Below, one piece after another: positions 1 to 37,311 of a stretch of DNA of 37,311 bases. Numbering within the stretch: the first letter of the stretch is position 1; each line of letters begins with the position of its first letter. This DNA comes from a virus: positions 1-37,311 of the IMG/VR virus record IMGVR_UViG_3300045825_000260; one strand, given 5' to 3'. The notes under the pieces were generated by a model that searched no databases, was not told the origin of the DNA, and saw only the letters and a list, made by a program, of their open reading frames with translations. The translations under genes and the position numbers were made by a program.

Positions 1-35
1 ACTTTGTAGATTGGCAGGTTTGTATGGATGGCCAT
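1..35 (-). CDS. avd: avd, N-terminal fragment (left-end copy)
   Basis: This is the first part of the DGR accessory protein gene, read on the minus strand from the ATG at 33-35 and cut by the window start. The same bases are complete at 36691-37047. If the molecule is circular this is not a separate gene. Confidence 0.8.
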   Translation of the reverse strand, partial: MAIHTNLPIYK

Positions 36-64
36 GCTGAAATACCAAAAAAATAACTAAATTA

Positions 65-433
65 CTAAATTACTGATCTGCGGACGGCACGCGCTCTGAG
101 CTTGACGTTCTTATGATTGAGGCTCTGGTAGCCGTAGCCGAAACTCTGACACCAGGCATAATCTGAGTAGTAAGAGTGCTGCGTATTTGACCAGTACCAT
201 TCTTTTTTGAACTGATCCGGAAGGTGTTTGTATAACAGCGCTTGTTCGACACGATCAGGCAGATCGCCGCCGATTGACGCAGCCCATTCCATCTGTTTAC
301 CCCACGATGCGTCATCGTTATCACCAGGGAGTAGGATTGCATGGTGACCGGTGCCATCAGGCTTGATGATCGCGCCGGCATAGATTTCGCCTTCATTCAG
401 TTCTGGTACTGCAATGGTTTTTTCGGTGTTCAT
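65..433 (-). CDS. DGR variable target protein 1 (C-type-lectin-fold, DUF1566-like)
   Basis: A 122-residue protein of the formylglycine/C-type-lectin-fold type diversified by DGRs. Conserved landmarks are GGDLPDRVEQALL at about residues 55-67, a YWSNTQHS motif, the variable stretch, and the ending LRARAVRRSVI. The last 37 residues or so are encoded by the variable repeat at 74-184. The start is well supported by AAGGAGG five bases before the ATG at 433. In the family the fold is a rigid scaffold whose surface residues vary to change ligand binding. The ligand is unknown here. The gene sits directly upstream of avd, as in many DGR cassettes, but inside an early-type operon rather than with the tail genes, so a virion location is not assured. 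A second version with other variable residues is at 37077-37311. Confidence 0.9.
   Translation of the reverse strand: MNTEKTIAVPELNEGEIYAGAIIKPDGTGHHAILLPGDNDDASWGKQMEWAASIGGDLPDRVEQALLYKHLPDQFKKEWYWSNTQHSYYSDYAWCQSFGYGYQSLNHKNVKLRARAVRRSVI
74..184 (-). repeat. DGR variable repeat VR1
   Basis: This 111-bp segment aligns without gaps to the template repeat at 36408-36518. In the core, positions 105-150, 11 substitutions are present and every one falls where the template coding strand has an adenine. Two further differences at 169 and 172 are at template guanines, near the 5' edge of the repeat. The 3' part (coding sense, 74-104) is identical to TR and should be the initiation-of-mutagenic-homology (IMH) segment. 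Confidence 0.95.
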
Positions 434-476
434 ATTGCCTCCTTGGTTGTGATTACTTCATAAAATAGTTTGCTGA

Positions 477-1696: not shown

Positions 1697-1851
1697 ATCG
1701 TGTGCCTCGCAAGCGCCCAGGAGACGGAGATGCACATTCCCTGTTTGCGGTAGTATCGGTAATGACCGATGCAGCGGATTACTCGTGTCAGCAAGTTAGC
1801 CTGGTGATACCCGCTCGGTTTGCGGCGGGGGAGTAGGATGGCGCGGTTCAT
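1693..1851 (-). CDS. hypothetical small basic protein, 52 aa
   Basis: A 52-residue basic protein beginning MNRAILLPRRKPSGYHQ, with a CIGHYRYYRKQG segment and ending WALARHTI. Both ends form ATGA overlaps with the flanking genes, a strong sign of a real translationally coupled gene although it is short. GAGG lies 11 bases before the ATG. The aromatic and arginine-rich helix pattern resembles many short phage proteins of unknown role. Confidence 0.55.
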   Translation of the reverse strand: MNRAILLPRRKPSGYHQANLLTRVIRCIGHYRYYRKQGMCISVSWALARHTI

Positions 1852-2234
1852 ACCGGCGTTCCCTCATCTTCATTTGAAATAATTGCCTGTACACCGAGTC
1901 GGAAAATGGCATCGAGCGCATCGTCCACCGTTCCATCCGGGTTGAGCATCAGAAATATATTGATAGCCACATCGGTGGCAACTACTCGATCGGGTATCAC
2001 GTTTACGGTATAGGTAGTAATGATGTGCTCCTCTTGTATCAGGGATGCTTCAGCGCTTTTGATGGAAGCAAATACTTGCTCTCGAATATGAGATGGTAGG
2101 AAGCTATCTGTGTCATATGGCCTTACGTAATCTGTGACCTCACCAGCAACAGCCTTCAGTGCGGCGAGCATTCCTGTGTTGATGCGGCAAATCTCGTTTT
2201 TTGGTACTGGTTGCGCTTTTGGTGGGTTCAACAT
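1848..2234 (-). CDS. hypothetical protein downstream of DGR target 2
   Basis: A 128-residue acidic protein beginning MLNPPKAQPVPKNEI and ending ISNEDEGTPV, with mixed helices and strands. The ATG at 2234 has GGAGA five bases upstream, the same leader (GGAGAAAATC) that precedes the gene at 752. The open frame actually extends upstream to 2804 only because of a 1-nt deletion in the DGR target 2 gene. I therefore annotate this gene from its own ribosome binding site. Function unknown. Confidence 0.65.
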   Translation of the reverse strand: MLNPPKAQPVPKNEICRINTGMLAALKAVAGEVTDYVRPYDTDSFLPSHIREQVFASIKSAEASLIQEEHIITTYTVNVIPDRVVATDVAINIFLMLNPDGTVDDALDAIFRLGVQAIISNEDEGTPV

Positions 2235-2277
2235 GATTTTCTCCAGCAAATGATCTGAGAAATGAATTGATAAATGA

Positions 2278-2717
2278 CTAAATAACTGATCTGCGGACGG
2301 CACGCGCTCTGAGCTTGAGGCCCTCCGACTGGTGCTCTGGGTGCCGTAGCTGAAACTCTGAAACCAGGCATAATCTGAGTCGTCAGAGTGCTGCGTGTTT
2401 GACCAATAAGCCTCTTCCTTAAACTCTTCATGCACGCATTCAAGCAACAGTGCTTGCTCAACACGGCTTGGCAGATCGCCACCGGCAGCCTTTGCCCGCT
2501 CCATCTGATTCGCCCAATTATCGGCAGCAAAATCAGTAGGCAATAAAATTATGTGGCATGTTTCACCGTTTGGGCGGGTGATAGAGCACAGGTATCTTTC
2601 ATCAGATGAAAGCGTTACGCCTTCGGGCAGATAGGGTGCTGGTAACTGTTCAAATGCGGCGATTAGGGCTGAAAGCCTGCTTTGTTCGGTCTTGATTTGA
2701 TCGAGTGTGACGGTCAT
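2278..2717 (-). pseudogene. DGR variable target protein 2, frameshifted in its variable repeat
   Basis: A second C-type-lectin-fold target. It starts at the ATG at 2717 (GGAGA upstream) and has a longer N-terminal region with a short helix (TLDQIKTEQSRLSALIAAFEQ) before the shared GGDLPSRVEQALL and AYWSNTQHS landmarks. Restoring one missing base between 2325 and 2326 gives the normal ending ARAVRRSVI with TAG at 2278-2280 and a protein of 146 residues. As written, the frame shifts inside the variable repeat, ends with the out-of-frame SERVPSADQ, and runs on into the next gene. The base may be truly lost in this molecule, lost during retrohoming, or an assembly error. Confidence 0.8.
2287..2396 (-). 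repeat. DGR variable repeat VR2 (110 bp, one base deleted)
   Basis: It aligns to the TR at 36408-36518 with one gap, between 2325 and 2326, where the template coding strand has a T. The other 14 differences in the core all lie at template adenines. The IMH end (2287-2317) and the 5' end, including GTCGTCAG, are identical to TR. Confidence 0.93.
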
Positions 2718-2745
2718 GGATGTCTCCGTTGGTTTGGTTTTAATT

Positions 2746-2866
2746 AGCATCAGGTAGGCGGCTGCTCGTAAAGCAGCGAGACATGGGCAATCGGCTTTTC
2801 TCATGCGGCGCTTTGTCGCGTTATCCGCTGCCGACCATGCTGCACTTGCTTCGCCTACCTGATGCT
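2746..2866. repeat. 15-bp perfect inverted repeat in the leftward leader
   Basis: AGCATCAGGTAGGCG at 2746-2760 is the exact reverse complement of 2852-2866, with 91 bases between. A smaller hairpin, GCTGC/GCAGC, lies just inside the left arm at 2761-2776. The element lies in the untranslated leader between the leftward promoter and the target 2 start at 2717. In the transcript it would form a long-range stem just ahead of the ribosome binding site. No convincing gene lies in 2718-2958. Confidence 0.7.
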
Positions 2867-2959
2867 GACTATGTATGCCGTGTTGGCCCCGATATGGGAG
2901 GACTACAGCTTGCGTCGCCTTGGCAGCGCATCTCCGCTGGGGTTGCGGTATGGGTAAAC

Positions 2960-2987
2960 TTTACACCTCTAGGTGTTATAGTGTCAA
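2960..2987 (-). promoter_or_regulatory. early leftward promoter PL
   Basis: On the minus strand TTGACA (2987-2982), a 16-base spacer and TGTAAA (2965-2960) form a good sigma-70 promoter reading into the target 2 gene. One operator fills the spacer and a second abuts the -35. The layout is almost the same as the rightward promoter at 4491-4518. Confidence 0.75.
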
Positions 2988-3000
2988 CACCTAAAGGTGT
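2963..3000. promoter_or_regulatory. operator pair OL
   Basis: Two perfect palindromes, ACACCTCTAGGTGT at 2963-2976 and ACACCTAAAGGTGT at 2987-3000, have centres 24 bp apart. They match the pair at 4478-4515 in sequence and spacing, so the phage repressor and the Cro-like protein are the likely ligands. Confidence 0.85.
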
Positions 3001-4090: not shown

Positions 4091-4441
4091 TTATTTTTTT
4101 TCGCCGCTGGATTTTCTACTGAATTTAGCAATCGAATCAAGCAACTCCATTGCATCGTCTAGCCGGTCATCTGCTTGCATTTGCTCCAGGAGCATAACTC
4201 CACGCTTAATGCGCTCGTCTTCAATATGCGGGCGGCCTACCATTTCCCCCTCTCCGCTATCAAGCCAAAAGGGATTCACGCCGCAAGCTGCTGCAATTTT
4301 AATAAGCGCTGCGGTTTCCTGCTGAATTCCTCGTTCAAGCTTTGAAATTGTTTGTTGCGGCAAGCTAACTTTTTTGGAAAGCTCAATCTGCGTCAATTCC
4401 GCATATTCCCTGGCTGCCTTTATTCTGTTCGCTAAATTCAT
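4091..4441 (-). CDS. phage repressor, cI-like HTH protein
   Basis: A 116-residue protein with an N-terminal HTH_3/XRE domain at residues 2-60 (NRIKAAREYAELTQIELSKK, then PQQTISKLERG as recognition helix). It has no C-terminal LexA-type peptidase domain, so it is a short repressor rather than a self-cleaving one. The start at 4441 is chosen because the HTH begins there. The upstream extension to 4528 runs through the operators. The -10 box at 4456-4451 ends about 10 bases before the ATG, so the transcript should be leaderless or nearly so, as for lambda cI from PRM. It faces the Cro-like gene across the operator pair and is expected to bind ACACCTNNAGGTGT sites. Confidence 0.9.
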   Translation of the reverse strand: MNLANRIKAAREYAELTQIELSKKVSLPQQTISKLERGIQQETAALIKIAAACGVNPFWLDSGEGEMVGRPHIEDERIKRGVMLLEQMQADDRLDDAMELLDSIAKFSRKSSGEKK

Positions 4442-4450
4442 GTTTGTGAA

Positions 4451-4478
4451 GTTATAGCTCACCCAGCTTTCAGTCAAA
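4451..4478 (-). promoter_or_regulatory. repressor maintenance promoter (PRM-like)
   Basis: On the minus strand TATAAC (4456-4451) is preceded by TTTGAC/TTGACT (about 4478-4472) with a 15-16 base spacer. Operator 4478-4491 abuts the -35, an arrangement that in lambdoid phages allows the bound repressor to activate its own transcription. The predicted start is within a few bases of the ATG. Confidence 0.6.
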
Positions 4479-4515
4479 CATCTTGAGGTGTTGACTAGAT
4501 TACACCTTGAGGTGT
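4478..4515. promoter_or_regulatory. operator pair OR
   Basis: ACACCTTGAGGTGT at 4502-4515 is perfect; ACATCTTGAGGTGT at 4478-4491 has one mismatch. Centres are 24 bp apart, exactly as at OL. The perfect site lies in the PR spacer, and the imperfect one lies between PR and the repressor promoter. The single mismatch may make it the weaker site. Confidence 0.85.
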
Positions 4516-4518
4516 AAA
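4491..4518 (+). promoter_or_regulatory. early rightward promoter PR
   Basis: TTGACT (4491-4496), a 16-base spacer containing an operator, and TGTAAA (4513-4518). The segment ACACCTNGAGGTGTAAAG is shared with PL. Transcription should start near 4525, so the Cro-like gene at 4527 would have almost no leader. Confidence 0.75.
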
Positions 4519-4526
4519 GTGTGAGC

Positions 4527-4802
4527 ATGAATTATCTCCAAAAAACAATTGATCTGGTTGGCGGACAAAGTCAGCTTGCAAAGAAAATTACCAGATGGCA
4601 TTCCATGAATGGTGCTGGACTCATTGTCCGGCAGCAATATGTCTGGAAATGGCTTAACAGCGATTCGCCTATGCCTCCGGCTGAGCACTGCCGGGCCATT
4701 GAAGATATTACTAACGGCGCTGTCACTCGCTATGATTTGCGGCCTGATGTGTTCGGCGCTTCGGCTGACTGCGAATCCAATCAAACACAGGAGGCGGCAT
4801 GA
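4527..4802 (+). CDS. Cro-like / YdaS-like DNA-binding protein
   Basis: A 91-residue protein with the Cro/YdaS pattern: LVGGQSQLAKKI as first helices, QQYVWKWLNSD as recognition helix, then MPPAEHCRAIEDITNGAVTR and a short YDLRPDVF tail. It is expected to bind the same operators as the repressor and to favour lytic growth. I chose the ATG at 4527 instead of the GTG at 4521 because the predicted transcript starts about there. It is the first gene of the rightward operon and overlaps the next small gene by 4 bp. Confidence 0.88.
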   Translation: MNYLQKTIDLVGGQSQLAKKITRWHSMNGAGLIVRQQYVWKWLNSDSPMPPAEHCRAIEDITNGAVTRYDLRPDVFGASADCESNQTQEAA

Positions 4803-27106: not shown

Positions 27107-30100
27107 GTGACCACAACTCGCATAATTACCAACGCCGGATCGCCGCTCACTAAGCCGGACGGATTGCCACTAGCCTTCGTACAAGTATCGTTCCTGCTGT
27201 CATCGATTACAGCAACTCCGTGCGACGTATTTGACGCTGTGACAGGTGAGCGTGTGGTCGGCAGCGTAACCGCTGTCACTGATGCGTCTGGTGTATTTAG
27301 TGTGGCGCTGTGGCCAAACGATCGTGGCAGCATCGCCAGCCAGTACGTCTGCGCGATCAATTATCCCGGCGCGGGAAGCTTTGGTGCTGGCGTTCCGTCT
27401 GGATCAACGCCGCTCACATGGCTGCAATTTAAGACATCAGGCCTGCCGGTTACACCTCAGATTGTCACGGCACTGACGGCCTATATCGCGCAGATGGATG
27501 CGGATGTTGCAACAGCACTGGCGCAAGCAAATATCGCGACGGCAGAGGCCGCGATTGCAACCGCTGATGTTGCGCTTACGCATGCTGACGTTGTATTGAC
27601 TCATGCCGATGTAGTGCTCACGCATGCTGACGTAGTATCAACTCATGCCGATGTAGCGCTTACGCACACCGATGTATCCCTGACCCATGCAGACGTTATC
27701 CTGACTGATGCAGACGTTGCGGCAGCGGCAGCAAGTGCGGCAAGCGCAGCATCAAATGCGGCTTTATTGTCAGCAGCACTCGCAACATTTCGCTCAAAGT
27801 GGCTTGGCAGTTTTGCGACTGACCCAGCCGTCGATGGCAATGGCAACGCGCTGGCCACTGGCGTGGAATATTTCAACAGCGTAGAAAACAAACTGCGCGT
27901 TTATGGTGCGACCGGCTGGGCTGATTATGACGATGCTGCGCAGACCGAGACTACAAACGCAGCACTGTCTGCCGTATCTGCATCGAGTAGCGCATCTGCT
28001 GCTGCAAACTCACTGGCGGCGGCTGTCATTCAAGCTGCGTTGGCAACATCAAACGGGCAAGCGCAAGTATCGTTAGCGGCTGCGCAGGCGGTACTGGCGA
28101 CCACCAATGGCGCTGCGCAAGTAACGCTGGCTATTGCTCAAGCTGTCGCCGCTGCTAACTCAGCAACTTCGTCAGCAACCAGCGCAACCGCATCCGCATC
28201 AAGCGCAGCGCAAGCGGTGATCGCTCAAACTCTCGCACAAGCAGCATGGGCGGCATCAACCGCGCCGACCGAGCGGATTGCGGCAGTAAGCAAGACTTTC
28301 TTCACGAACTCGGCCATCGTTGCTGCAATCATCTACGACACGCGCAAGGATAGTGACGGCGGCGCATGGCGCAATCGTTGTCAGGCAACGAGCTGGTATA
28401 ACGAAACGATCTATGGCGTGTATCGCGGTGAGCGCGCAACCGAAGCGGCCTGCCGTGCGATCAGTGGCGCGACTACGAATGACTTTTTCCACAACACCAC
28501 AGACGGTAAGTTCTACGCACTGAACGCCACGTCAGGTGTCACTGAGGTTTTCCGTGGAGGTCGTAGCGAATTTCCTGAGATTGTTGCGATTACAATTAAT
28601 GGAAATAACGCAATTGTGTGGGATCTGACAGATAGCTCGGTTCCTATGTGGATAGTCATCCCTATTACAGTTGGAGGAGGGTGGGTTTACTTCGGACACT
28701 CACAAGCATCTAGCATCACCGCAATAAACGGCGCAATGCTGTTTGGAACGCAGGATGGTGTTGTGTTTGCTGACATGATTCGAGATAGGGGCAGAATTAT
28801 CACGGGCTCTGCTTCTTACGGCGGATGGGATTCATTACCTCTTTCAATGCGAAATGCAACACTCCATACTTATGCGCAAGGAACTGTCGTAGGATTGCCC
28901 GCAATTGCAAATTCTACAGTCAACTCCATCGCAGCCACCGTCCTTCCAAACGCACCTATTGATCCTGCAACTGGTCTTCCTGTACCCACAATTGCTGTAT
29001 TCACCGCTGGCGGCGTGAGCGTGATCAAGGATGATGGGACGGTAGTGAATAGCGCAAACGCAAGCAGTGCAAGTTTCGGCGGATTTTACAAAAACGGGGA
29101 TTTATTGTGGTCAACTGGCGCTGGCTCAATTGAGTTTTTTGCCGCATCTCCTATCTCGGCAGGATTTGGCGGGACAAGATATAACGGTGGAAATGCAACG
29201 ATACCTGCCACATCAGGATTGGCGGCGAGTAAAAGGATAGCGTTAGCTTCTTATCTGGTATTAGGCTCTGCGATTCTTGAGTTTATTAAAGAAAATCCAA
29301 CAACACCGTCTGCCGGAATGGTTGCCGCCATTACTAACACCTACAACACGGGTTGGATGAATGGTGACATTCGTTTGGCCGCGCTGGCTGATACGGTTGC
29401 TGAGACTGTGGGTGGAGCCAATCTCATAGCTGGTGATTCTGCCAACTTTAATGGCGGAACGGTTGGAAGCTGGTCTGCTCCGTATCTAAGCGCTATCGCT
29501 GTTGTAGCAAATCAGTTAGTCGTTACTGCCACCGGAACTAACCCATACGCTGCGCTATATAGCATCCACACTACCATCGGCAAGGCATACAGAGTGTCTA
29601 TTGATGCTGTAGCTAAGACTGCTGGTGTCACTAATGTGTCCTTGTATATTGGCAATGCAAATGGACTTGCTCAAAGCCAATATGGAATTATCTGGCTATC
29701 ACTACTTCCGGTAGGTGCCGCTTTCATATTTATCGCAACAACTACTACGTTATGTCTTCAGGCGTCCGCGACGTGCGCTGTCGGTGATACTTTCACGATA
29801 GACAACATCTCAGTAATTGAATGCGCGGCAGACCGAAGCGTAAAAGCTAATCCTCTGACTGTAGTGGGTGGTCTGACTAAGTCAGCAGTGAACACAAATT
29901 CGCAGCTTGTCGCATGGTCTGGATTCTCAACGGCTAATTATTTGCTACAGCCCTATTCAGCAAACTTAGATTTCGGGACAGGTGATTTTTGTTACGCAGC
30001 TTGGATTGACGCATCCAGTGGGAATCAGGTGCTATTTTCAAGAGGAAGTGGCACAACAGCAGGTTCAATTTTATGTTTTATAAATGGGGGCGGAACTCCT

Positions 30101-30925
30101 ATTTTATTTTATATTCATAATGGAACATCGTGGGTGCAGTTTAATTCAGGGAATATCCCGCCTACAAAAGGCCTATACATGGCCGTTCGCCGGAGCGGGG
30201 TATTGGAGCACTGGTTCAATGGTGCAATGATCAGCTCTGTGGCTTGCGCGCTGACAGTAACTAACACTACTGCTTCACTCATGATTGGTAATCGGCAGGA
30301 CGCGACGCAAGGTAATTTAGTATTTTCGGCACTTTTTCGTGCAACCGCCACAGCCCCGTCAGTCGACCAGATAGCCTACATCTACGAAACAGAGCGCAAG
30401 CTGTTCGAGCCAAATGCGAAATGCACCATCGACGGCATATCAACCGCCGTAACCACGCTGGCCTACGACGAAGTGACCGATCTGCTCGATGTCGGCACGT
30501 CATGGGGTAGATCGACATTCAAGGGGCTTGTGCGTCAATCATCAGAGGCCACGACCAACGGCTCGGCGGTGGCCTATGCCGCATACGACGGCAACCAGAT
30601 CACAGTCGGCACAACGGGCGCGAAGCTCTATATCCCGTCAAAGTATCTGCGCGATGAGCTGAACCGTGCCGCTGAGCAGAAAAAGCAGTTTGGTCAGCAG
30701 CTGGTCAAAAAGACATTCGTCGCAACTTCAGGCCAGACCGTGTTCATCATGGGTATGAATGAGGTGGTTAGTTCAGTCTATCAGCAGGGCTTATTGAAAG
30801 ATGAATCGGCGGGTGCTGGATTTTACTCGTTGTCGTTTGATGGTTTCCGCTGGTCTATCACGCTCGGAACTGGCGCAACAACCAGTGACCGCATCACTGT
30901 GTTCTATACGAAGGTGCTGCCGTGA
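27107..30925 (+). CDS. long tail fibre / tail tip receptor-binding protein
   Basis: A 1272-residue fibre starting at GTG with AAAAGGA upstream. Residues 1-115 form an immunoglobulin-like or attachment domain. Residues 153-204 contain a heptapeptide repeat (ADVVLTH-type), then Ala/Ser-rich segments that probably form coiled coil (to about 390). Residues 960-1090 look like a concanavalin/LamG lectin fold (NLDFGTGDFCYAAWIDASS, VLEHWFNGAMI). The end resembles fibre C-termini (GTGATTSDRITVFYTK). The DGR variable repeats are not in this protein. Confidence 0.88.
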   Translation: MTTTRIITNAGSPLTKPDGLPLAFVQVSFLLSSITATPCDVFDAVTGERVVGSVTAVTDASGVFSVALWPNDRGSIASQYVCAINYPGAGSFGAGVPSGSTPLTWLQFKTSGLPVTPQIVTALTAYIAQMDADVATALAQANIATAEAAIATADVALTHADVVLTHADVVLTHADVVSTHADVALTHTDVSLTHADVILTDADVAAAAASAASAASNAALLSAALATFRSKWLGSFATDPAVDGNGNALATGVEYFNSVENKLRVYGATGWADYDDAAQTETTNAALSAVSASSSASAAANSLAAAVIQAALATSNGQAQVSLAAAQAVLATTNGAAQVTLAIAQAVAAANSATSSATSATASASSAAQAVIAQTLAQAAWAASTAPTERIAAVSKTFFTNSAIVAAIIYDTRKDSDGGAWRNRCQATSWYNETIYGVYRGERATEAACRAISGATTNDFFHNTTDGKFYALNATSGVTEVFRGGRSEFPEIVAITINGNNAIVWDLTDSSVPMWIVIPITVGGGWVYFGHSQASSITAINGAMLFGTQDGVVFADMIRDRGRIITGSASYGGWDSLPLSMRNATLHTYAQGTVVGLPAIANSTVNSIAATVLPNAPIDPATGLPVPTIAVFTAGGVSVIKDDGTVVNSANASSASFGGFYKNGDLLWSTGAGSIEFFAASPISAGFGGTRYNGGNATIPATSGLAASKRIALASYLVLGSAILEFIKENPTTPSAGMVAAITNTYNTGWMNGDIRLAALADTVAETVGGANLIAGDSANFNGGTVGSWSAPYLSAIAVVANQLVVTATGTNPYAALYSIHTTIGKAYRVSIDAVAKTAGVTNVSLYIGNANGLAQSQYGIIWLSLLPVGAAFIFIATTTTLCLQASATCAVGDTFTIDNISVIECAADRSVKANPLTVVGGLTKSAVNTNSQLVAWSGFSTANYLLQPYSANLDFGTGDFCYAAWIDASSGNQVLFSRGSGTTAGSILCFINGGGTPILFYIHNGTSWVQFNSGNIPPTKGLYMAVRRSGVLEHWFNGAMISSVACALTVTNTTASLMIGNRQDATQGNLVFSALFRATATAPSVDQIAYIYETERKLFEPNAKCTIDGISTAVTTLAYDEVTDLLDVGTSWGRSTFKGLVRQSSEATTNGSAVAYAAYDGNQITVGTTGAKLYIPSKYLRDELNRAAEQKKQFGQQLVKKTFVATSGQTVFIMGMNEVVSSVYQQGLLKDESAGAGFYSLSFDGFRWSITLGTGATTSDRITVFYTKVLP
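27563..27718 (+). repeat. 21-bp tandem repeat coding seven heptapeptides
   Basis: Seven consecutive 7-residue units of the form (A/T)DVxLTH, with codon drift between units, followed by a partial ADV. The period of seven and V/L placement fit a trimeric coiled coil in the fibre shaft. Such tandem repeats can change copy number by slippage. Confidence 0.8.
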
Positions 30926-34872: not shown

Positions 34873-35300
34873 TCTGTAATCCTTTGGGCAAGTTTAACCT
34901 TCATCTCATCTAGTTCAGCGCGCAGCACATCGATCTGTAATCCGTATTCAAGTTGTGCTTGCGCGATGGCGCGGAAATAGCTTAATTTATCCCGCTCACT
35001 CTCCGTACGGAGTGCCGCGTTTTCAGCGCGCAGATCGTCATCACTTTGTATCGGAACATACGTTCTCTGCTCATCCGGGCGCATGACCTTGAACGATCCG
35101 TTCTGCCCGAAGCGCAGCCAGTTACCCTGGTGAATGCACAATAGCGACATTCCTTTTCCTCGCGCCATGATCGTGCCGCGTTCAAGTTCAAAACCTTCAT
35201 AACCTAGCTCGCGCAATTCTGCGGATACCGTGCTGAGATTTGTACCGTCCCATTGTAGTAGTCGTGCTTTGTATGCTCTTTTTTGATGTGTCCAGTTCAT
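34869..35300 (-). CDS. unknown protein coupled to the DGR reverse transcriptase
   Basis: A 143-residue protein. The first 85 residues are beta-rich (KARLLQWDGTNLSTVSAEL, GNWLRFGQNGSFKVMRPDEQ), and a coiled coil follows (DLRAENAALRTESERDKLSY to the end). The ATG overlaps the reverse transcriptase stop as ATGA, with CGGAG before it, so its translation is linked to that of the RT. It matches none of the DGR accessory types that I know (Avd, HRDC, MutS-like). It may be a regulator or an unrelated phage protein. Confidence 0.65.
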   Translation of the reverse strand: MNWTHQKRAYKARLLQWDGTNLSTVSAELRELGYEGFELERGTIMARGKGMSLLCIHQGNWLRFGQNGSFKVMRPDEQRTYVPIQSDDDLRAENAALRTESERDKLSYFRAIAQAQLEYGLQIDVLRAELDEMKVKLAQRITE

Positions 35301-36403
35301 GTTTTTCTCCGATAAATTTTTGTTAAGTTCCCGTTAATCGTGTGGCCGCGATATCGCAGGATGTTTGAAATCTTCGCGCGCTGGTGATAGCTGTTTGATG
35401 CCTGGCGAAATAGGCCGTAATAACTGTTGGCTGTTTCAAATAAGTCTTTGGTGTCGATACTATGGATTCGCTTGATCGCTTCGTTCACTGTACGTTTGCG
35501 CGTTGTACGGCACCATGGACGAATGACTTGGCCAACAAAGTCCACGCCGCGCGATACCGGTTGCAGAATGGTTTTTGATGGGTTGATCTTGGCGCGTAAT
35601 TTGTCAGCCAGAAACTCCTCGATCCGCGCTTTTGCGGCATTCAGCCATTGCGGCGATTCGTGAAGCAACACGAAGTCATCGACATAGCGGATATAGTGTT
35701 TCGCGCCGATCTGGTGTTTGACGAACTGATCCAACGAATCGAGATAAATGTTGGCGAAAAACTGCGATGACAAATTGCCGATCGGCAGGCCAAGATGCGC
35801 CGGGTGATTCACCAGGCGTTTATGTCTCGGTACCAGATCCGGCATGTCCGGATTACCGCGCAGCTCGTAGTCCTGGCGCGGATCGTGAAACAGAATCGTG
35901 TTGGATAGTTGCATCCACCATGGCTCAGTGACACGTTTTGCGATCAAGTCGCGTAGGATGTTCTTATCGATGCTGACAAAGAAGTTAGCTAAGTCCAGTT
36001 TCAGGTAGTGCGCTGGCCGGCTCCAGTTCTGCGTGATGCTGCGAATCTTCGTCTCGATGCGCTGGGCTGCATACAGTGTGCCGCGTCCTGGTATGCATGC
36101 GCAGCTGTCTGCAACGAACGATGCATAAAATCGCGGTGAGACTCGATTATAAAAAAGATGGTGCACGATGCGATCGCGGAAATCTGCGGCCCACACTTCG
36201 CGCGGTTTTGGGCGGGTGATTACAAAGCAGATCGAGCGGCACGGGTGATAGGTACCATCTCTCAGCTCATCGTTAAGATCGCATAGGTTTCGCTCAAGGC
36301 TCTGTTCGAAAGCCAAGGCGCTGGCAGTATTGCGTTTTGACTTCCGGCAGTCGATGTAAGCCTGCACCAGTTCGGCAAAGGTGAAATCAGCATGGTGGCG
36401 CAC
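35297..36403 (-). CDS. DGR reverse transcriptase
   Basis: A 368-residue retroelement-type reverse transcriptase. Motifs are FRDRIVHH, YLKLDLANFFVSIDK, LGLPIGNLSSQF with the DGR-typical GxxxSQ at about 209-214, YVDD at 240-243, and a C-terminal thumb region (RIHSIDTKDLFETANSYYGL). It copies TR RNA to cDNA with errors at adenines, with Avd as partner. I chose the GTG at 36403, which gives the usual length and N-terminus (FTFAELVQAYIDCRKSK). There is no strong ribosome binding site. The frame remains open upstream through TR to 36727, so the true start is uncertain. It overlaps the next gene by 4 bp. Confidence 0.93.
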   Translation of the reverse strand: MRHHADFTFAELVQAYIDCRKSKRNTASALAFEQSLERNLCDLNDELRDGTYHPCRSICFVITRPKPREVWAADFRDRIVHHLFYNRVSPRFYASFVADSCACIPGRGTLYAAQRIETKIRSITQNWSRPAHYLKLDLANFFVSIDKNILRDLIAKRVTEPWWMQLSNTILFHDPRQDYELRGNPDMPDLVPRHKRLVNHPAHLGLPIGNLSSQFFANIYLDSLDQFVKHQIGAKHYIRYVDDFVLLHESPQWLNAAKARIEEFLADKLRAKINPSKTILQPVSRGVDFVGQVIRPWCRTTRKRTVNEAIKRIHSIDTKDLFETANSYYGLFRQASNSYHQRAKISNILRYRGHTINGNLTKIYRRKT

Positions 36404-36407
36404 GGTT

Positions 36408-36518
36408 TGATCTGCGGACGGCACGCGCTCTGAGCTTGTTGTTCTTATGATTGTTGTTCTGGTTGCCGTTGTTGAAATTCTGATACCAGGCATAATCTGA
36501 GTCGTCAGAGTGCTGCGT
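36408..36518 (-). repeat. DGR template repeat TR
   Basis: A 111-bp template between avd and RT. In the target frame it reads NTQHS-type start, YAWYQNFNNGNQNNNHKNN and the ending KLRARAVRRS. Its many AAC/AAT codons are the signature of adenine-directed diversification. It matches VR1, VR2 and VR3 over their whole length. Five bases separate it from the chosen RT start. The upstream stretch 36519-36690 has no convincing gene and probably belongs to the template RNA. Confidence 0.96.
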
Positions 36519-36690
36519 CGTGTCGTGCTATCTACGTCGCCACACCGAAGGCTTGCGCCGATCAGCGAGGAAACTGCGCCAGACCTATCCTGGGTAACTA
36601 GCCCGGAGGTTTCTGGGGTGCGCATGTCGGTAGCCATATTGGCCAGCGGCACAACCAGATCAAGATTTCGCACAGGGACGGTAACCATGA

Positions 36691-37047
36691 CTACCGTACA
36701 GCGGGCGACGTTGCTTTGCGGCGCCATCCATTAGCCTGCTTTCCTACGCTGTTAGTCAGCTCGATCGCACTAGCATATTGCCCGGTAGAGATTAGCCGCT
36801 TGTCTCGTGAGAGGCGCAGTAACAGCTCACATACCTGTAGGCGTTCGATCAGATCGGTTAAGTGTGGCGCCTTGTCCTGGGCGCAATTCGCACGAAAAAC
36901 AAGAGCCATAATCTCAACACATTCGTCACTGACCTTACCGCCGATTGAGCGCTTGAACTCGCGCGGCATATTCTTGACTAGCTCAGTTACAACGTCGAGC
37001 AGGTCATAGGCAACTTTGTAGATTGGCAGGTTTGTATGGATGGCCAT
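36691..37047 (-). CDS. avd: Avd, DGR accessory variability determinant
   Basis: A 118-residue, mostly helical, basic protein of the four-helix-bundle Avd/S23-like family: YKVAYDLLDVVTELVKNMP, PREFKRSIGGKVSDECVEI, then APHLTDLIERLQVCELLLRL and ISTGQYASAIELTNSVGKQ. Avd forms a pentamer that binds nucleic acid and the reverse transcriptase and is required for retrohoming. It follows the target gene and precedes TR, the order of the Bordetella phage BPP-1 cassette. The promoter is not local; transcription from the upstream operon is likely. Confidence 0.92.
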   Translation of the reverse strand: MAIHTNLPIYKVAYDLLDVVTELVKNMPREFKRSIGGKVSDECVEIMALVFRANCAQDKAPHLTDLIERLQVCELLLRLSRDKRLISTGQYASAIELTNSVGKQANGWRRKATSPAVR

Positions 37048-37076
37048 GCTGAAATACCAAAAAAATAACTAAATTA

Positions 37077-37311
37077 CTAAATTACTGATCTGCGGACGGC
37101 ACGCGCTCTGAGCTTGCTGCCCTTACGAAGGCCGTACTGGTCGCCGTTGAGGAAATACTGATACCAGGCATAATCTGAGTAGTCAGAGTGCTGCGTATTT
37201 GACCAGTACCATTCTTTTTTGAACTGATCCGGAAGGTGTTTGTATAACAGCGCTTGTTCGACACGATCAGGCAGATCGCCGCCGATTGACGCAGCCCATT
37301 CCATCTGTTTA
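37077..37311 (-). CDS. DGR variable target protein 1, second variant (cut by window end)
   Basis: This is the C-terminal 77 residues of the same target protein as at 65-433, with the same conserved framework (GGDLPDRVEQALL, YWSNTQHS, LRARAVRRSVI) but a different variable part: YAWYQYFLNGDQYGLRKGS here against YAWCQSFGYGYQSLNHKNV at the left end. The 5' part lies beyond the window or, if circular, is the part at 300-433. Confidence 0.9.
   Translation of the reverse strand, partial: KQMEWAASIGGDLPDRVEQALLYKHLPDQFKKEWYWSNTQHSDYSDYAWYQYFLNGDQYGLRKGSKLRARAVRRSVI
37086..37196 (-). repeat. DGR variable repeat VR3 (second state of VR1)
   Basis: A 111-bp gapless match to TR. All 13 core substitutions lie at template adenines. 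One more difference, at 37181, is at a template guanine and is shared with VR1. The IMH segment is identical to TR. Confidence 0.94.

What the first reader, a model, noticed from the sequence alone, without database searches (positions are those of the whole stretch)
37013..37311. The two ends capture two mutational states of the same variable gene
The 299-bp ends are copies except for 19 differences, 18 of which are at template adenines. If the contig is circular, its two ends come from molecules that differ only where the DGR acts. This is direct evidence that the system is active in the sampled population, and the diverse VR may be the reason the assembly failed to close there.
Basis: partly seen in the sequence, partly recalled or inferred. 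Interest (0 to 1): 0.9.

Follow-up and report, generated by a model that had tools for sequence, protein, structure and literature searches.

The report
Two phage variants at contig ends
The two ends of this phage sequence are overlapping copies of one stretch that differ almost only where a known mutation machine (a diversity-generating retroelement) rewrites a binding protein, so they most likely record two variants present in one sample; the kind of system is already well known.

Summary
Bases 1-299 and 37013-37311 match at 280 of 299 positions; all 19 differences lie at 105-172 and 18 fall on template (TR) adenines (p = 2e-9). The window is one 37,311-bp IMG/VR virus record with an ordinary phage DGR (target, avd, RT-15 RNA, TR, RT; minus strand). 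The copies sit exactly at the two contig ends, and joining them completes both split genes. The closest relative (L202) has holin, target, avd, TR and RT on one molecule. Relatives often carry tandem targets, but in 85-86 such pairs the VR flanks never exceed 82% identity; here 231 flanking bases are identical. The repeat stops 127 bp past the last difference, the top k of JGI's metaSPAdes protocol. Two related contigs show the same break: G009's ends differ only at TR adenines, and G006's 127-bp overlap starts one base after a VR variant. Best reading: a circular genome cut where two VR alleles part and rejoin in the assembly graph. This shows recent diversification, not activity at sampling time. 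DGR activity in metagenomes is already documented (PMC8144416): a clean new member of a known kind.

The parts
1..299 (.). left contig end: copy of the end repeat (avd start, intergenic gap, 3' part of target 1 with VR allele V1)
   Evidence: 94% identical to 37013-37311
37013..37311 (.). right contig end: second copy of the end repeat with VR allele V2
65..433 (-). DGR target 1, 122 aa, C-type-lectin-like (Lcl_C-like) protein; allele V1
   Evidence: Lcl_C E=3e-6 (below the gathering score); model pLDDT 95 and Foldseek to Lcl C-terminal domain and C-type lectins
37077..37311 (-). target 1 again, cut by the contig end; allele V2; completed by 300-433
   Evidence: joined reading frame is open and 122 aa long
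74..184 (-). variable repeat V1; 11 TR adenines changed
37086..37196 (-). variable repeat V2; 13 TR adenines changed
36691..37047 (-). avd, DGR accessory protein
   Evidence: bAvd PF22296 1.9e-14, phrog_3206 1.1e-34
36516..36710 (-). RT-15 RNA directly upstream of the TR
   Evidence: RF03018, 168 bits
36408..36518 (-). template repeat TR
   Evidence: 88%/83% to V1/V2, differences at its adenines
35297..36403 (-). DGR reverse transcriptase (in-frame GTG start at 36403 inferred)
   Evidence: RVT_1 8.3e-17; 80 viral relatives at 66-78% identity
1848..2804 (-). second DGR target gene, its VR at 2286-2396 with a 1-nt deletion that shifts the frame

Best explanation
The record is one turn of a circular (or circularly permuted) temperate-phage genome, cut open by the assembler at the hypervariable repeat of DGR target 1. 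The RT copies the TR RNA with errors at adenines and the cDNA replaces the VR. At least two VR versions therefore coexisted in the reads. In a k=127 de Bruijn graph they form two parallel paths around a shared circle; the assembler entered by one allele (V1, left end) and left by the other (V2, right end), stopping where the paths rejoin. Shown: the overlap, the adenine bias, the intact genes after joining, and the same pattern in related contigs. Inferred: circularity, coexistence in one sample, and the assembly route.
For: Overlap starts at base 1 and ends at the last base. Joining restores both target 1 and avd. L202 (RT 89% identical) carries g1008-holin-target-avd-TR-RT on one contig, so the left-end genes really neighbour avd. 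18/19 differences at TR adenines, with no shared new base at co-mutated sites. The flank after the last difference is 127 bp; JGI metaSPAdes runs use k up to 127 (PMC10434106, PMC10604447), and G006, G013 and G054 show exact 127-bp end overlaps. G009's ends overlap 144 bp and differ at 5 positions, all TR adenines. G006's 127-bp overlap begins one base after the last VR variant. Of 11 relatives with end overlaps, 2 break at a VR, 0.2 expected, p = 0.017. In paralogue target pairs of relatives the flanks reach at most 78% (upstream) and 82% (downstream) identity, against 100% here.
Against: No reads, so no link across the join and no allele counts. The left flank is 104 bp, not 127, so only one side fits the simple graph picture. 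One difference (172) is not at a TR adenine. Contig ends in general are only mildly and not significantly enriched near VRs (rough estimate). Tandem targets are common in relatives.
Confidence: 0.86

Rival explanations
1. Two tandem copies of target 1 (a recent duplication that includes the avd start) lie on one molecule, and the contig ends happen to fall at the copy edges. Each copy's VR was rewritten separately.
For: Most relatives carry two or three VR targets, usually about 400-500 bp apart, upstream of avd; Magia has two on a finished genome; the window has a second target at 1848-2804.
Against: Paralogue flanks in relatives are at most 78-82% identical, here 100% over 231 bp including 35 bp of avd; the repeat is flush with both contig ends; joining leaves no spare gene fragment.
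Confidence: 0.08
2. The phage has real terminal direct repeats of about 299 bp that contain the VR, so each virion holds two alleles.
For: Repeat exactly at both ends.
Against: In most of 80 relatives, among them viral records derived from isolate genomes and Magia, the VR-avd junction lies inside the contig; end overlaps of other relatives lie elsewhere and have assembly k-mer lengths of 121-127 bp; replication would be expected to homogenise the two copies (inference).
Confidence: 0.03
3. The two alleles come from two separate strains or pooled samples whose VRs diverged long ago, so the DGR need not be active now.
For: Nothing in one contig dates the retrohoming; source pooling is unknown.
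Against: No difference in 231 flanking bases and no shared new base at six co-mutated adenines point to recent rewriting.
Confidence: 0.3

Closest known systems
Bordetella phage BPP-1 type DGR (mtd-avd-TR-RT)
   Same: target, avd, TR, RT in this order on one strand; adenine-specific differences; C-type-lectin-fold target (BPP-1 facts from own knowledge)
   Different: small free-standing Lcl_C-like targets near a holin-like gene instead of one tail-fibre protein; RT-15 RNA precedes the TR here
Burkholderia phage Magia DGR (MT701587)
   Same: small lectin-fold targets, avd, TR, RT in the same order; VR mismatches 8/8 and 11/11 at TR adenines
   Different: Magia has two adjacent targets on a finished genome; in the window only one target lies next to avd and the second is about 2.2 kb further upstream
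DGRs with population variation in metagenomes (Roux et al. 2021, PMC8144416)
   Same: VR diversity within natural populations, taken as recent activity; SNVs at 70.1% of VR loci, 50-75% of DGRs with signs of recent activity
   Different: there from mapped reads; here read from the two ends of a single contig
Contig G009 (IMGVR_UViG_3300044796_000303)
   Same: both contig ends lie in the same VR and differ only at TR adenines
   Different: overlap is 144 bp and ends inside the VR

Membership tests
Diversity-generating retroelement | reverse transcriptase of the DGR type beside the repeats | tested here: met
   RVT_1 8.3e-17; TR/VR pairs beside the RT in nearly all of 80 related loci; IGNLSSQ motif seen in the sequence (motif rule from own knowledge)
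Diversity-generating retroelement | TR/VR pair whose differences fall at TR adenines | tested here: met
   inside the VR homology V1 has 11 changes at A and 2 at G, V2 13 at A and 1 at G
Diversity-generating retroelement | accessory Avd protein | tested here: met
   bAvd PF22296 and phrog_3206
Diversity-generating retroelement | target with C-type lectin (or Ig) fold, VR at its C-terminus | tested here: met
   AlphaFold2 model pLDDT 95; Foldseek best hit 8q4e Lcl C-terminal domain E=4e-4, then C-type lectins; changed residues are 87-109 of 122
Diversity-generating retroelement | mutagenic retrohoming shown by experiment | not testable with these tools
   needs live phage or a reporter
Circular genome with an assembly overlap at its ends | repeat starts at base 1 and ends at the last base | tested here: met
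Circular genome with an assembly overlap at its ends | overlap identical | tested here: not met
   94%, all differences inside the VR; explained by allelic paths, not proved
Circular genome with an assembly overlap at its ends | joined genes intact and syntenic with relatives | tested here: met
Circular genome with an assembly overlap at its ends | reads spanning 37012 to 1 | not testable with these tools
   raw reads not available

The most novel reading that the evidence does not exclude
Each phage molecule really carries two physical copies of the VR region (a terminal repeat or a tandem duplication that includes the avd start), so that a single virus holds two independently rewritten alleles of one binding protein.
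Probability: 0.08. Interest if true: 0.5.

Novelty: new member of a known kind. Interest (0 to 1): 0.32.

Why it matters
It gives a read-free sign of DGR diversification: when a circular phage contig is cut at its VR, the two ends can keep two alleles. Two further contigs of this family (G009, G006) are cut at a VR in the same way, so public assemblies could be screened for such end pairs. It also warns that completeness tests that look for exact end repeats can miss DGR phages whose genomes are in fact complete.

Tried and rejected
A 30-mer from the VR 3' flank found no other contig in viral contigs (near records may be hidden), so no third allele could be read. Chimera between tandem VRs: rejected, because the shared VR stretch is well under 127 bp and both ends show the same target-avd junction. 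General enrichment of contig ends at VRs: of 28 contigs whose upstream end lies within 3 kb of the RT, 7 end inside or within 127 bp upstream of a VR; against a rough uniform expectation of about 4 this is not significant, so I rely on the exact registers in G006 and G009 instead. A Bacteroidales RT query found only one further viral locus. The metagenome collection could not be scanned. Papers were searched for an earlier report that VR diversity breaks assemblies; none was found among the open-licence papers, which is no proof that none exists.

Full report
Observation. The claim is exact. Bases 1-299 and 37013-37311 align without a gap, with 19 differences at 105-172 (also found). Against the template repeat (minus strand of 36408-36518), 18 of the 19 are at TR adenines (p = 1.9e-9). 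The exception, 172, is a TR G: T in the left copy and G in the right. The left copy has 11 and the right copy 13 changed adenines; six are changed in both and never to the same base. Both versions leave the 122-aa target open and change 12 residues.

What the window is. It is a single IMG/VR virus record of 37,311 bp with a tyrosine integrase, an excisionase-like protein, a repressor-like HTH protein, a portal and a tail protein, so probably a temperate tailed phage. The DGR lies on the minus strand: target 1, avd (36691-37047), RT-15 RNA (36516-36710), TR (36408-36518), RT (35297-36403). Target 1 has a C-type-lectin-like fold: model pLDDT 95, best solved match the Legionella Lcl C-terminal domain, then many C-type lectins. 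Hosts of the nearest cellular relatives are Gallionella and other Betaproteobacteria, which suggests, but does not show, the host.

One locus or two? Most relatives carry two or three VR targets near avd, as does the finished isolate genome of Burkholderia phage Magia, and multi-target DGRs are described in PMC10743442. The tandem reading therefore had to be taken seriously. Three facts go against it. (1) In 85-86 within-phage paralogue pairs the flanks of the VR reach at most 78% and 82% identity with gaps allowed (ungapped 74% and 79%), whereas the window's copies are identical over 231 flanking bases, 35 of them inside avd. (2) The repeat begins at base 1 and ends at the last base, and joining restores both cut genes. 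(3) The nearest relative, L202, has g1008, holin, target, avd, TR and RT on one contig, so the window's left-end genes belong next to its right-end genes. L202 itself has two targets there.

Why the contig broke there. The right end lies exactly 127 bp beyond the last difference. JGI's metaSPAdes protocol uses k = 33 to 127 (PMC10434106 and PMC10604447), and three relatives have exact end overlaps of 127 bp (G006, G013, G054). That is where two allelic paths would rejoin in the graph. The left flank is 104 bp and is not explained by k; a low-coverage tip would do it, but this is a guess. Independent support: contig G009 ends in its own VR on both sides, with 126 identical bases and then five differences, all at TR adenines; the 127-bp overlap of G006 begins one base after the last VR variant; G007 ends inside a VR. 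Among 11 relatives with end overlaps, 2 break at a VR where 0.2 are expected (p = 0.017). A looser test on all contig ends is not significant.

What it shows about activity. A retrohoming event overwrites the tract with a fresh copy of the TR, so one event is enough to make either allele from the other (mechanism from established DGR knowledge). With 0 of 231 flank differences the two lineages are close (upper bound 1.3%). This is good evidence of recent diversification, but not of activity at the time of sampling, and it cannot tell a single sample from a pooled assembly. Such variation is known: Roux et al. found SNVs at 70.1% of VR loci and signs of recent activity in 50-75% of DGRs (PMC8144416).

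Verdict. Confirmed observation, mostly right reading, known kind of system. The useful extra is that the pattern recurs in related contigs and could be screened for without reads.

Noticed in passing
window 2286-2396 (target 2 at 1848-2804, minus strand): A second VR made from the same TR has a 1-nt deletion (around the T of CATAAG); apart from it the changes sit at TR adenines. The frameshift makes target 2 run on into the next ORF; a later retrohoming event would naturally replace this tract, or it may be an assembly error in a polymorphic VR.
   Followed up: partly
window 1-461 versus L202 3458-4388: Target 1's body resembles L202's distal target A (85% nt), but its junction with avd resembles L202's avd-proximal target B. 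This suggests that recombination between tandem VRs removed one target in the window's lineage.
   Followed up: partly
window 36516-36710 (minus): RT-15 RNA (RF03018, 168 bits) sits directly upstream of the TR, overlapping the end of avd and the start of the TR; it is probably part of the DGR RNA.
   Followed up: no
window 27542-27709: A 21-bp tandem repeat array inside the 1272-aa ORF 27107-30925, which matches a tail fibre family.
   Followed up: no
window 2958-3000 and 4478-4520: A 43-bp inverted repeat pair, 84% complementary, built of ACACCT...AGGTGT motifs, flanking the region with the repressor-like gene 4091-4528; possible operators.
   Followed up: no
window 159-180, minus strand: Seven TR adenines in the 5' part of the VR are unchanged in both alleles, and that part of target 2's VR is identical to the TR too; either the cDNA tract ends near 150 or selection keeps them.
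   Followed up: partly
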